Shown here: piece by piece, positions 2,590-4,749 of the stretch | Numbering within the stretch: the first letter of the stretch is position 1 | Layout of the letters: the number at the start of each line of letters is the position of its first letter | IMG/VR virus record: IMGVR_UViG_3300038421_000076 | Coordinates: 1-25,568 of that record | DNA: 25,568 bases | Source of the DNA: a virus | Strand: one strand, 5' to 3' | Translations under genes and position numbers: made by a program | Notes under the pieces: generated by a model | Database searches by the model: none | Seen by the model: only the letters and a program-made list of their open reading frames with translations | Told to the model about the DNA's origin: nothing

Positions 2590-4593
2590 GTGTATAGCCG
2601 GAAGGTCATTGCTGCGCGAAGCGCGATGGTGGAGCGCCTGACGGGGGTGGCCCTCCGGGAGTATTCCATTCGGGAAACCGATGGGTTGATTCAGGAGTTG
2701 GAGGAGATGAAGGACACCCCCATCTCCTCCCTCCCCGAGCGCCTCCAGAGCTTCATCATCAACGAGCAGAGGCTGTGTTGCATTGACTTTAGGTATTGGT
2801 GCAAGTACGCGAAGATCGTAACGGATAGGAGACGGGAGGAGCGGTTCACCCCCTGGCCGTCACAGGAGTTCTTCCTTGCGCGCGTAGCGCGCGAGGAAGA
2901 GAGGCAGTGGGATGCGTGGTTGGGGGCTGGGGGCACTGGCGAGTTCCGCTTTAAGGGCCGCTTCATCTTCCTGAAGAGCCGCCAGGTTGGTGCGACTAGG
3001 GTTGGGAACATCCTCGGCGCGCACGTTACCATCAACAGTGAGAATACATATTCCCTAATTGCATCGGACACCCCCGAGAAGGGGCTGGAGCTGTGGAGGC
3101 TGTGGGATCGCCTATACAGTAGCCTCCCTTGGTGGCTCGCGCCCGCGCGTGACTCCCGCGTCAAGGGGGAGGAGCAGTACTTCGCGGGGACCAATTCCAC
3201 ACTCGTCGTTGGGGCAGGAAATCAGAAGGCGTCCTTCGGGCAGGGGGTGACCGTTGACTTCTTCCACCTGACGGAGATCTCCAGGTGGAATAGGGATGTT
3301 ATTGAGCTGGTGGACCAGGATCTCTTCTGGGCATTTGAGTCAAGCAGGAAGGTCTCCAGCATTGGTATCTTGGAATCAACCGCAGAGGAAGGCGTCGGTG
3401 GTTGGTTCAAGCAGCAGTGGGATCTGAGCGTCAGGGAGAAGAGCCTCTTCATCCCAACGTTCCTTGGGTGGTTTTTATGTCCTGAGAAGTTCACCCTAGA
3501 GGATCCATCCATTGTCCTCACCTCCGAGACGCTAGCCCTCGGGAAGCAAATCGAGGAGAGGTTCCCGGATGTCCACCTTTCCACCTCCCAGCTCCGGTGG
3601 TATCAATCCCGCAGGGGAGAGATGGAAGGGAAGGGGAAGCTCGGGGAGTTCCTCTCCCAAGTTCCCAGCTTCCCCGAGGAAGCCTTCCAGTTCGCCAACA
3701 AGAGCATCTTCTCCCCCTCGGTGATTGAGGTGATGAGTAGGGGGGTGCAGAAGCCCATTCAGGTAAAGGAATGGCGGGGTGGGGCGTTCGTAGACGCCAC
3801 GTGGGATGGGGATCCCGTCAAAGCGGATGGGCTCTTGCTCGTGTGGGCGCCCCCGATGGTGGGGAGGACATACTACATTGCGGTAGATGGCGCCCACGGG
3901 CGCGAGGGCGGGGATGCACATGCGGTCCAGGTAATGGCCGCGCCCGTTGGCTCTGCCAAGGCGGAGCAGGTAGCGGAGTGGAGGGGGGTTGGGGGCGGGC
4001 TAGCGTCGGTGGGGGCAGTGACCAGCATTGCTATGACCCTTGGGGAGCTATATAGGGATCCCATCACTGCCCGCCCGGCGTGTATCGCCCCAGAGAGCAA
4101 CCCGGGGAGCCCGAGTGCGTTCGTGACGTTGAAGCTAGTAGAGATCGGGTATTCCAACATCTACATCCACCGCCAAGTTGGGAGGATCAGGGGGGAGCAA
4201 CTGAGGCCGGAGCTGGGGTGGCAGACAACCTCCGCCACGCGCACACCCTTGGTGCTACGTGGGAAGGAGGCGTTGGACGCTGGGGATATCCTCATCCGCT
4301 CCCCGAGGGTTATCGCAGAAATGCGCACCTTCGAGAAGAAGTGGACGGAGAGCGGGAGGGTTGTTAGGTATGAACACTCCGAGGGGGAGCATGATGATGT
4401 GTTGATCTCCCTCTTCATCGCATACTGGGTAGCGACGGAGGAGTTCGCGTTGATGGATGCGGAGAGGAGCGCACGCGCTGCGCGCGTGGAGGAAGTGAAG
4501 ACCCCGAAGTGGGATCCGGGGATGATCGTCCTCTCGGGGGAACCGACTAAGGTGCCGGGGTTGCCTACGGATTTGTTTGGGCGCTTCTACTAA
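2590..4593 (+). CDS. terL: Terminase large subunit (ATPase and nuclease)
   Basis: This 667-residue protein powers DNA packaging into the procapsid and cuts the concatemer. The ATPase half shows a Walker A-like KSRQVGATR (residues 129-137) and a Walker B-like VTVDFFHLTE (220-229). The nuclease half shows three acidic clusters of the RNase H-like fold: VDGAHGREGGD around D433, APESNPG around E502 and EHDD around D602/D603. Order, spacing and length fit the family. The start is GTG 2590, the first after an in-frame stop at 2581; its ribosome site is poor (GGGGC), and ATG 2626 is an alternative. It sits 37 bases after the small subunit gene and ends just before two convergent tRNA genes. Confidence 0.93.
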   Translation: MYSRKVIAARSAMVERLTGVALREYSIRETDGLIQELEEMKDTPISSLPERLQSFIINEQRLCCIDFRYWCKYAKIVTDRRREERFTPWPSQEFFLARVAREEERQWDAWLGAGGTGEFRFKGRFIFLKSRQVGATRVGNILGAHVTINSENTYSLIASDTPEKGLELWRLWDRLYSSLPWWLAPARDSRVKGEEQYFAGTNSTLVVGAGNQKASFGQGVTVDFFHLTEISRWNRDVIELVDQDLFWAFESSRKVSSIGILESTAEEGVGGWFKQQWDLSVREKSLFIPTFLGWFLCPEKFTLEDPSIVLTSETLALGKQIEERFPDVHLSTSQLRWYQSRRGEMEGKGKLGEFLSQVPSFPEEAFQFANKSIFSPSVIEVMSRGVQKPIQVKEWRGGAFVDATWDGDPVKADGLLLVWAPPMVGRTYYIAVDGAHGREGGDAHAVQVMAAPVGSAKAEQVAEWRGVGGGLASVGAVTSIAMTLGELYRDPITARPACIAPESNPGSPSAFVTLKLVEIGYSNIYIHRQVGRIRGEQLRPELGWQTTSATRTPLVLRGKEALDAGDILIRSPRVIAEMRTFEKKWTESGRVVRYEHSEGEHDDVLISLFIAYWVATEEFALMDAERSARAARVEEVKTPKWDPGMIVLSGEPTKVPGLPTDLFGRFY

Positions 4594-4595
4594 AA

Positions 4596-4672
4596 TGGCC
4601 CCCGCGGTGGGGCTCGAACCCACATCGTCCACTTACGGCCACCCGCTTAGGAGGCGGGGCCGGTACGCGGGG
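4596..4672 (-). tRNA. Aberrant tRNA-Arg (anticodon CCT) without a normal D-arm
   Basis: Seen on the minus strand. The acceptor CCCCGCG (4672-4666) pairs with CGCGGGG (4606-4600), followed by G and an encoded CCA. The T-arm GTGGG-TTCGAGC-CCCAC is standard. The anticodon arm CCCGC-CTCCTAA-GCGGG gives anticodon CCT, which reads AGG. Total length is a normal 77 bases, but only 7 bases lie between acceptor and anticodon arm, where a D-arm of about 17 should be, and 18 bases lie between the anticodon and T arms. Those 18 contain TAAGTGGAC, closely matching the D-loop TAACTGGAC of the neighbouring tRNA. CGGCC at the 5' side can also pair with GGCCG, lengthening the anticodon stem. It may be a functional D-armless tRNA, a rearranged one or a decaying copy. 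Confidence 0.7.
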
Positions 4673-4673
4673 G

Positions 4674-4749
4674 TGGGGCGCCCGGAAGGATTCGAACCTT
4701 CATCTCTGGCTTAGAAGGCCAGCGCTTTGTCCAGTTAAGCTACGGGCGC
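4674..4749 (-). tRNA. tRNA-Arg (anticodon TCT)
   Basis: A complete cloverleaf of 76 bases on the minus strand: acceptor GCGCCCG/CGGGCGC, D-arm GCTT-AACTGGACA-AAGC with the conserved GG, anticodon arm CTGGC-CTTCTAA-GCCAG with U33 and anticodon TCT, T-arm GAAGG-TTCGAAT-CCTTC, then C and an encoded CCA. It reads AGA (and AGG by wobble). The discriminator base C is unusual for arginine. It lies upstream of the CCT tRNA with a single base between them, so the two are probably cut from one transcript. No clear minus-strand promoter is visible. Confidence 0.93.

What the first reader, a model, noticed from the sequence alone, without database searches (positions are those of the whole stretch)
4596..4672. 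Arginine tRNA (CCT) lacking a D-arm in the normal position
Acceptor stem, T-arm, CCT anticodon arm and CCA end are intact and the total length is a normal 77 bases. Only 7 bases lie 5' of the anticodon arm, and an 18-base segment with a D-loop-like TAAGTGGAC lies 3' of it. The 5' CGGCC can pair with GGCCG to give a 9-bp anticodon hairpin with a 2-base bulge. This looks like a D-armless tRNA or one with D and anticodon arms in swapped order, which I do not know from phages. It could be a functional minimal tRNA, one resistant to host nucleases, or a pseudogene.
Basis: partly seen in the sequence, partly recalled or inferred. Interest (0 to 1): 0.72.

Follow-up and report, generated by a model that had tools for sequence, protein, structure and literature searches.

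The report
Phage tRNAs with a permuted D-arm
The odd gene is a real transfer RNA whose D-arm has been cut and re-ordered around the anticodon arm, and the same re-ordered design, kept in register by compensatory mutations, recurs in hundreds of phages (including ordinary E. coli phages) where standard software misses or mislabels it.

Summary
At 4672-4596 (minus strand) lies a 77-nt Arg(CCU) tRNA directly 3' of a normal tRNA-Arg(UCU). It is not D-armless. The D-stem 3' strand precedes the anticodon arm, and the D-stem 5' strand plus a complete D-loop (A14, A15, G18, G19, A20) follows it, so the D+anticodon domain (nt 10-43) is internally permuted. The two strands still pair and extend the anticodon helix. 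I found 196 distinct sequences of this architecture (0 in reversed-sequence controls). In 206 sequences chosen without using the D-stem, it pairs in 95% of cells, against 20-39% out of register. The Levitt pair 15-48 covaries (A-U 31, G-C 6, crossed 0). Nearly all decode Arg (A20) or Ile (U20), as bacterial ArgRS and IleRS require. Permuted anticodons are rarely duplicated by a canonical tRNA in the same array. One subtype occurs in about 250 sequenced phage genomes, mostly unannotated. A covariance model built without the window finds it at E=1.4e-23. I found no description in the open literature searched. Charging and translation remain inferred; why phages use this form is unknown.

The parts
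4596..4672 (-). permuted-D-arm tRNA-Arg(CCU), whole gene incl. CCA
   Evidence: sequence; CM R1 built without it: 86.8 bits, E=1.4e-23; alignment A2
4666..4672 (-). acceptor stem 5' strand CCCCGCG (pairs with 4600-4606)
4664..4665 (-). U8 A9, invariant in aligned relatives (U8 was required by the finder)
4659..4662 (-). D-stem 3' strand CGGC, placed 5' of the anticodon arm
   Evidence: pairs with 4636-4639; register and covariation
4642..4658 (-). anticodon arm CCCGC-CUCCUAA-GCGGG, anticodon CCU at 4649-4651
4640..4641 (-). 2-nt linker/bulge UG joining anticodon stem to D-stem 5' strand
4636..4639 (-). D-stem 5' strand GCCG, placed 3' of the anticodon arm
4624..4635 (-). D-loop (A14 4634, A15 4633, G18-G19 4630-4629, A20 4628) running into the variable region, U48 at 4624
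   Evidence: same motif in canonical neighbour's D-loop (UUAACUGGACAA); Levitt 15-48 covariation and A20/U20 rule
4607..4623 (-). T-arm GUGGG-UUCGAGC-CCCAC
4596..4606 (-). acceptor 3' strand CGCGGGG, discriminator G73, CCA
4674..4749 (-). canonical tRNA-Arg(UCU), 1 nt upstream of the permuted gene
   Evidence: ARAGORN, Rfam RF00005 74.2 bits
4853..4881 (-). promoter-like TTGACA-17-TACATT upstream of both tRNAs
   Evidence: consensus scan; not evidence of function
2590..4593 (+). terminase large subunit gene, convergent with the tRNA pair (context only)
   Evidence: PHROG phrog_2, E=2.3e-11

Best explanation
The element is a functional phage tRNA-Arg of a previously unrecognised architecture: a non-circular permutation of the D-arm/anticodon-arm domain. 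The canonical order 10-13 / D-loop / 22-25 / 27-43 is replaced by 22-25 / 27-43 / linker / 10-13 / D-loop. In the canonical L-shaped tRNA the D-stem stacks coaxially on the anticodon stem, so the end of the anticodon stem lies next to the start of the D-stem. Re-joining the chain there, and opening it at the D-loop near A9 and the variable region, should keep the same contacts: D/AC coaxial stack, U8-A14, 15-48, G18G19 with the T-loop, and A20 exposed to the synthetase. SHOWN: conserved architecture, compensatory D-stem changes, Levitt-pair covariation, identity bases, anticodon non-redundancy, and spread across unrelated phages. INFERRED: the molecule folds as an L, is processed and CCA-ended like other tRNAs, is charged with Arg by the host ArgRS (Ile relatives by IleRS), and reads AGG, the most used Arg codon of this phage.
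For: Architecture: a finder requiring acceptor, T, anticodon and permuted D stems gives 246 hits in 4.4 Mb of fetched loci and 0 in the same sequences reversed; after removing false positives, 243 genes in 217 loci, 196 distinct. Unbiased D-stem test: 206 distinct sequences chosen without using the D-stem have 95% of D-stem cells paired in register against 20-39% slid; 179/206 pair all three positions against a shuffled mean of 39 and maximum of 59. Covariation: all three D-stem pairs of the 75-sequence alignment have double changes (CG, AU, GC, UA), with 0/500 shuffles reaching the whole-structure covariation score; the 22-sequence set with the window gives 98.2% of cells paired against 38-47% slid. 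Levitt 15-48 in 39 sequences not fixed by a seed pattern: A-U 31, G-C 6, crossed 0, p=4e-7. Identity: Arg types carry A20 in 156/158, Ile types U20 in 41/42 and A73 in 42/42, matching bacterial determinants (A20, C35, U/G36, A/G73 for Arg; U20, A35, U36, A73 for Ile; PMC9976931). Non-redundancy in arrays of >=8 canonical tRNAs: with a permuted UCU, canonical UCU present in 1/36 against 27/71 without (p=4e-5); ACG 0/13 against 36/94 (p=0.004); GAU 2/19 against 45/88 (p=0.0016). Spread: one subtype in 262 phage records, 249 over at least 80% of its length, most 85-100% identical across Felixounavirus, Justusliebigvirus, Klebsiella phages and jumbo phages. AGG is 37% (174/470) of Arg codons in the window's ORFs.
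Against: There is no RNA, charging or structural data. In the window's own sequence the folding energy is not exceptional (z=-0.12). The window phage has no close relatives in the collections, so conservation is shown for the class, not for this phage lineage. Two minor inconsistencies: the Magritte phage carries both a permuted and a canonical UCU, and a crAss-like permuted Ile gene has two acceptor mismatches.
Confidence: 0.88

Rival explanations
1. The permuted tRNA is selected because it escapes host tRNA-cleaving defences (anticodon nucleases, VapC-like toxins, Septu/retron PtuAB, PARIS) or host tRNA quality control that recognise the canonical core, while ArgRS/IleRS and the ribosome still accept it. 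This is a reason for keeping the architecture, additional to the best explanation.
For: The class is concentrated in phages: 0 of 397 other genomes sampled in a prophage-bearing isolate's phylum have it. Of 29 genome-collection pattern hits, 8 are true members, one of them in a prophage with terminase and tape-measure genes. Phage tRNAs are known or proposed to counter tRNA-depleting defences (PMC10264068; PMC11555353). Only two amino-acid families dominate, which suggests target-specific pressure.
Against: No defence that spares this topology is shown. The anticodon loop, the usual cleavage site, is ordinary (CUCCUAA, CUUCUAA). The class could equally persist by horizontal spread alone.
Confidence: 0.25
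2. D-armless (mitochondria-like) minimal tRNA: the D-arm was lost and the 3' extra segment is a spacer.
For: No D-arm in the normal position; such tRNAs exist in animal mitochondria (PMC4013460, listed; PMC7609411).
Against: The D-stem strands are both present and covary; D-loop bases A14, R15, G18, G19 and N20 are conserved in canonical spacing; length is normal.
Confidence: 0.02
3. Decayed tRNA pseudogene, or assembly/rearrangement artefact.
For: Standard tools do not recognise it.
Against: Same arrangement in 217 loci and about 250 sequenced isolate genomes, with compensatory changes in every helix.
Confidence: 0.01
4. A tRNA mimic or regulator (for example an ArgRS/IleRS decoy or riboregulator) rather than a translating tRNA.
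For: Unusual topology; no direct proof of decoding.
Against: Standard 7-nt anticodon loops with cognate anticodons, encoded CCA in 94 of 158 Arg types, location inside tRNA arrays (82 of 244 within 20 nt of a canonical tRNA) and anticodon non-redundancy with canonical tRNAs.
Confidence: 0.07
5. The gene order is restored after transcription to a normal cloverleaf, as for circularly permuted tRNA genes of algae and an archaeon.
For: Precedent for permuted tRNA genes (PMC3978253).
Against: Termini here are the normal acceptor ends, so circularisation cannot restore order; two internal cuts and re-ligation would be needed. The D-stem pairs correctly in the encoded order, and linkers fall into conserved motifs (UUGAAA, CGUUAAYC) rather than splice motifs.
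Confidence: 0.02

Closest known systems
Canonical bacterial tRNA-Arg / tRNA-Ile
   Same: acceptor, T- and anticodon arms, U8, A14, R15-Y48, G18G19, A20 (Arg) or U20 (Ile), U33, discriminator, often encoded CCA
   Different: D-stem strands in swapped order flanking the anticodon arm; linker of 2-8 nt between anticodon stem and D-stem; D-loop runs straight into the variable region
Metazoan mitochondrial D-armless tRNAs (e.g. tRNA-Ser AGY/N)
   Same: no D-arm between positions 9 and 26
   Different: normal length; D-arm present but permuted; bacterial viruses, not mitochondria
Circularly permuted tRNA genes (unicellular algae, one archaeon; PMC3978253)
   Same: segments of a tRNA in non-standard order
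   Different: [quoted passage not shown] here the termini are normal and an internal block is permuted
8/4 and 9/3 tRNAs, allo-tRNAs, tRNA-Sec (PMC7609411)
   Same: natural tRNAs of non-canonical structure
   Different: those change stem lengths, not strand order
[quoted passage not shown]
   Same: internal re-ordering that keeps the same fold; described in 2023 as the first such natural RNAs
   Different: a self-cleaving ribozyme, not a tRNA

Membership tests
tRNA (functional adaptor) | 7-bp acceptor stem, 5-bp T-arm with TTCRA loop, 5-bp anticodon arm with 7-nt loop and U33 | tested here: met
tRNA (functional adaptor) | D-arm between nt 9 and 26 (canonical cloverleaf) | tested here: not met
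   7 nt only; ARAGORN and Rfam RF00005 give no match
tRNA (functional adaptor) | core tertiary elements U8-A14, R15-Y48, G18G19/T-loop | tested here: met
   bases present in sequence; 15-48 covaries; the fold itself not observed
tRNA (functional adaptor) | aminoacylation and decoding | not testable with these tools
   identity bases present
permuted-D-arm tRNA class defined here | UA + D-stem 3' strand + anticodon arm + linker + D-stem 5' strand + D-loop with GG, strands complementary | tested here: met
   CM R1 built without the window: 86.8 bits, E=1.4e-23; in 24 test loci true members score >=40 bits and canonical tRNAs <=31 bits
D-armless mitochondrial-type tRNA | D-arm absent, shortened tRNA | tested here: not met
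   77 nt; D-stem strands present and covarying
Circularly permuted tRNA gene | 3' half upstream of 5' half | tested here: not met
   acceptor strands at the normal ends
8/4, 9/3 or allo-tRNA | altered acceptor/T-stem lengths (8/4, 9/3) | tested here: not met
   7/5 acceptor/T-stem in the model and alignment; the window could add an eighth C-G pair with the discriminator, but the T-stem stays 5 bp

The most novel reading that the evidence does not exclude
A topologically permuted tRNA isoform, spread horizontally through phages for Arg and Ile codons, that is charged and used by host machinery while escaping host systems that recognise the canonical tRNA core: a counter-defence built by re-threading a tRNA.
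Probability: 0.25. Interest if true: 0.96.

Novelty: new variant of a known kind. Interest (0 to 1): 0.92.

Why it matters
The strand order of mature tRNA is generally taken as fixed. This class would be the first tRNA with an internally permuted mature order and, after the hammerhead ribozyme (PMC10085705), only the second natural RNA known to me with a non-circular permutation. It suggests that the L-shape tolerates re-threading, gives designers of orthogonal tRNAs a natural scaffold, and corrects the tRNA inventories of several hundred sequenced phages, including E. coli K-12 phages, whose codon analyses currently miss an Arg(UCU) tRNA. Because carriers grow on laboratory E. coli, charging, decoding and defence evasion are directly testable.

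Tried and rejected
D-armless tRNA, pseudogene and assembly error: rejected (see rivals). Other cloverleaf registers of the window sequence were checked by eye: no alternative D-stem or anticodon arm. Relatives of the window phage by terL: one viral contig at 21% identity and named phages at 22-28% identity, so no same-lineage test. The first BLAST of the tRNA pair mostly found canonical tRNAs. Plasmids: no match for the Bradyrhizobium form. Ro60-like proteins near some arrays: 3 of 87 permuted-bearing arrays against 3 of 20 others, no association with the permuted tRNAs. Three anticodon outliers are false positives of the finder (L062 AGA, L316 GCA, L488 AGA: normal tRNAs); two more oddities (AAU, GCU, AUG) are also normal tRNAs caught by the looser scan. 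A survey with the CM in 398 genomes of one phylum found only the genome used as its centre (strict filters, 12 candidates scored per genome). Literature: ten full-text searches found no description of this architecture; bioRxiv preprints and most subscription journals are not covered.

Full report
1. The observation. On the minus strand, 4672 to 4596, the sequence is CCCCGCG UA C CGGC CCCGC CUCCUAA GCGGG UG GCCG UAAGUGGACGAU GUGGG UUCGAGC CCCAC CGCGGGG G CCA. ARAGORN and Rfam see only the canonical tRNA-Arg(UCU) one base upstream. The two genes lie convergent with terL; a TTGACA-17-TACATT promoter-like site lies about 100 nt upstream of the pair. The minimum-energy fold is the 9-bp hairpin with a 2-nt bulge, but its energy is no better than that of shuffles, so comparative evidence was needed.

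2. What the parts are. The 3' extra segment UAAGUGGACGAU matches the D-loop of the canonical neighbour (UUAACUGGACAA) and ends like its variable region (GAU before the T-arm). The strand just before it (GCCG) is complementary to the strand just before the anticodon arm (CGGC). In tRNA numbering the canonical order 10-13, D-loop, 22-25, 27-43 has become 22-25, 27-43, linker, 10-13, D-loop, variable. The D-arm is permuted, not lost.

3. Relatives. Two IMG/VR pattern scans gave about 25 contigs with the same arrangement; later scans raised this to 246 finder hits in 4.4 Mb, with 0 in the reversed sequences. After removing recognised false positives there are 243 genes in 217 loci, 196 distinct. 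Linkers fall into three subtypes: short 3-5 nt (the window), UUGAAA with a U-U at the base of the anticodon stem, and 8-nt CGUUAAYC-like.

4. Structure tests. Selecting 206 sequences without any use of the D-stem, the permuted D-stem pairs in 95% of cells in register and 20-39% when slid; 179 pair at all three positions against a shuffled mean of 39. In the 75-sequence alignment every D-stem pair has CG, AU, GC and UA forms; that set had been filtered for D-stem pairing, so one search is the unbiased figure. The 22-sequence set that includes the window gives 98.2% paired cells and 0/500 shuffles as good. The tertiary Levitt pair 15-48, measured on 39 sequences whose seed patterns did not fix these bases, is A-U in 31 and G-C in 6 with no crossed case, plus two G-G. 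This supports a canonical-like core, although relatedness of the sequences is not fully controlled.

5. Function. Among 201 sequences, Arg types have A20 in 156 of 158 and Ile types U20 in 41 of 42, with A73 in all Ile types. Part of the A20 figure comes from seeds that contained A20; among sequences not matched by any seed it is still A in 23 of 25 Arg and U in 12 of 13 Ile types. A review of identity elements gives A20, C35, U/G36, A/G73 for bacterial Arg and U20, A35, U36, A73 among those for Ile (PMC9976931). Distinct anticodons: Arg UCU 82, CCU 31, ACG 17, UCG 5, CCG 1, GCG 1; Ile UAU 28, GAU 23, CAU 6; single Val (UAC) and CUU cases. A scan that excluded A20 returned only Ile types as true members. 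In arrays with at least 8 canonical tRNAs the permuted anticodon is rarely duplicated (UCU 1/36 against 27/71; ACG 0/13 against 36/94; GAU 2/19 against 45/88). For example L008 has 30 canonical tRNAs including Arg ACG and CCG, and its permuted pair supplies CCU and UCU. In the window AGG is the commonest Arg codon, 174 of 470, and CCU is its cognate anticodon.

6. Named carriers. The UCU subtype is in 262 INPHARED records, 249 over at least 80% of the query, including Escherichia phage EC6, Justusliebigvirus 'cardinal', Klebsiella phages and jumbo phages; a related form is in Salmonella SSBI34. Most are unannotated; some are 'tRNA-OTHER / Nd_NNN'. Streptomyces phage Yaboi carries CCU (unannotated) and UCU (annotated tRNA-Val). 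Mildred21 carries UCG annotated as tRNA-Phe. Cellular genomes rarely hold it: 8 true members among 29 pattern hits, one in a prophage and two in Bradyrhizobium tRNA arrays; a CM survey of 398 genomes in one phylum found only its own centre.

7. Independent membership test of the window. A covariance model from 19 relatives without the window finds 4672-4600 at 86.8 bits, E=1.4e-23; the canonical neighbour scores 29 bits. In 24 test loci true members score at least 40 bits and canonical tRNAs at most 31.

8. Known biology. D-armless mitochondrial tRNAs, 8/4 and 9/3 tRNAs and circularly permuted tRNA genes all differ in a tested defining feature (membership table). The 2023 paper on non-circular RNA permutations states that none were known in natural RNAs before its hammerhead ribozymes, and lists tRNA only as reversed-order genes restored by processing (PMC10085705). 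Ten searches of open full text found no description of this class; preprints were not searchable.

9. Origin (inference). Tandem duplication of nt 10-43 followed by loss of the first 10-21 and the last 22-43 gives this order. No intermediate was seen.

10. What is not shown. Expression, charging, decoding, three-dimensional fold, any advantage over canonical tRNAs, and why only Arg and Ile. The predicted fold rests on the known coaxial stacking of D and anticodon stems in canonical tRNA.

Noticed in passing
L155:1971-2048 (Streptomyces phage Mildred21, NC_042008) and L375:495-574 (Yaboi, NC_048730): Deposited annotations call permuted tRNA-Arg genes tRNA-Phe(gaa) and tRNA-Val(aac); the finder reads Arg(UCG) and Arg(UCU).
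   Followed up: partly
L150:3-1259 (Felixounavirus EC6, beside the 23-tRNA array): The annotated RNA-binding protein next to the array carries DUF2828 and DUF7788 domains.
   Followed up: no
L123:2882-4501 (Bradyrhizobium sp. C9); L126: A Ro60-like TROVE + vWA protein is encoded within a large tRNA array that also holds a permuted tRNA-Arg(ACG).
   Followed up: partly
UUGAAA subtype, alignment A1 columns 14-15 and 31-36: A nearly invariant internal loop 5'-CU / 5'-UUGAAA replaces the 26-44 junction and the base pair 27-43; it may be a structured joint that sets the D/anticodon stack.
   Followed up: partly
L153:2995-3070 (crAss-like Kehishuvirus tikkala): Permuted tRNA-Ile(GAU) with two mismatches in the acceptor stem, in a phage whose canonical Ile tRNA is UAU.
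   Followed up: partly
window 1-25568: An orphan tailed-phage fragment: terL, portal and capsid match PHROGs only distantly, terL relatives are at 21-28% identity, and AGG is the preferred Arg codon.
   Followed up: partly
all permuted tRNAs: The class is almost limited to Arg and Ile isoacceptors; no reason was found.
   Followed up: no
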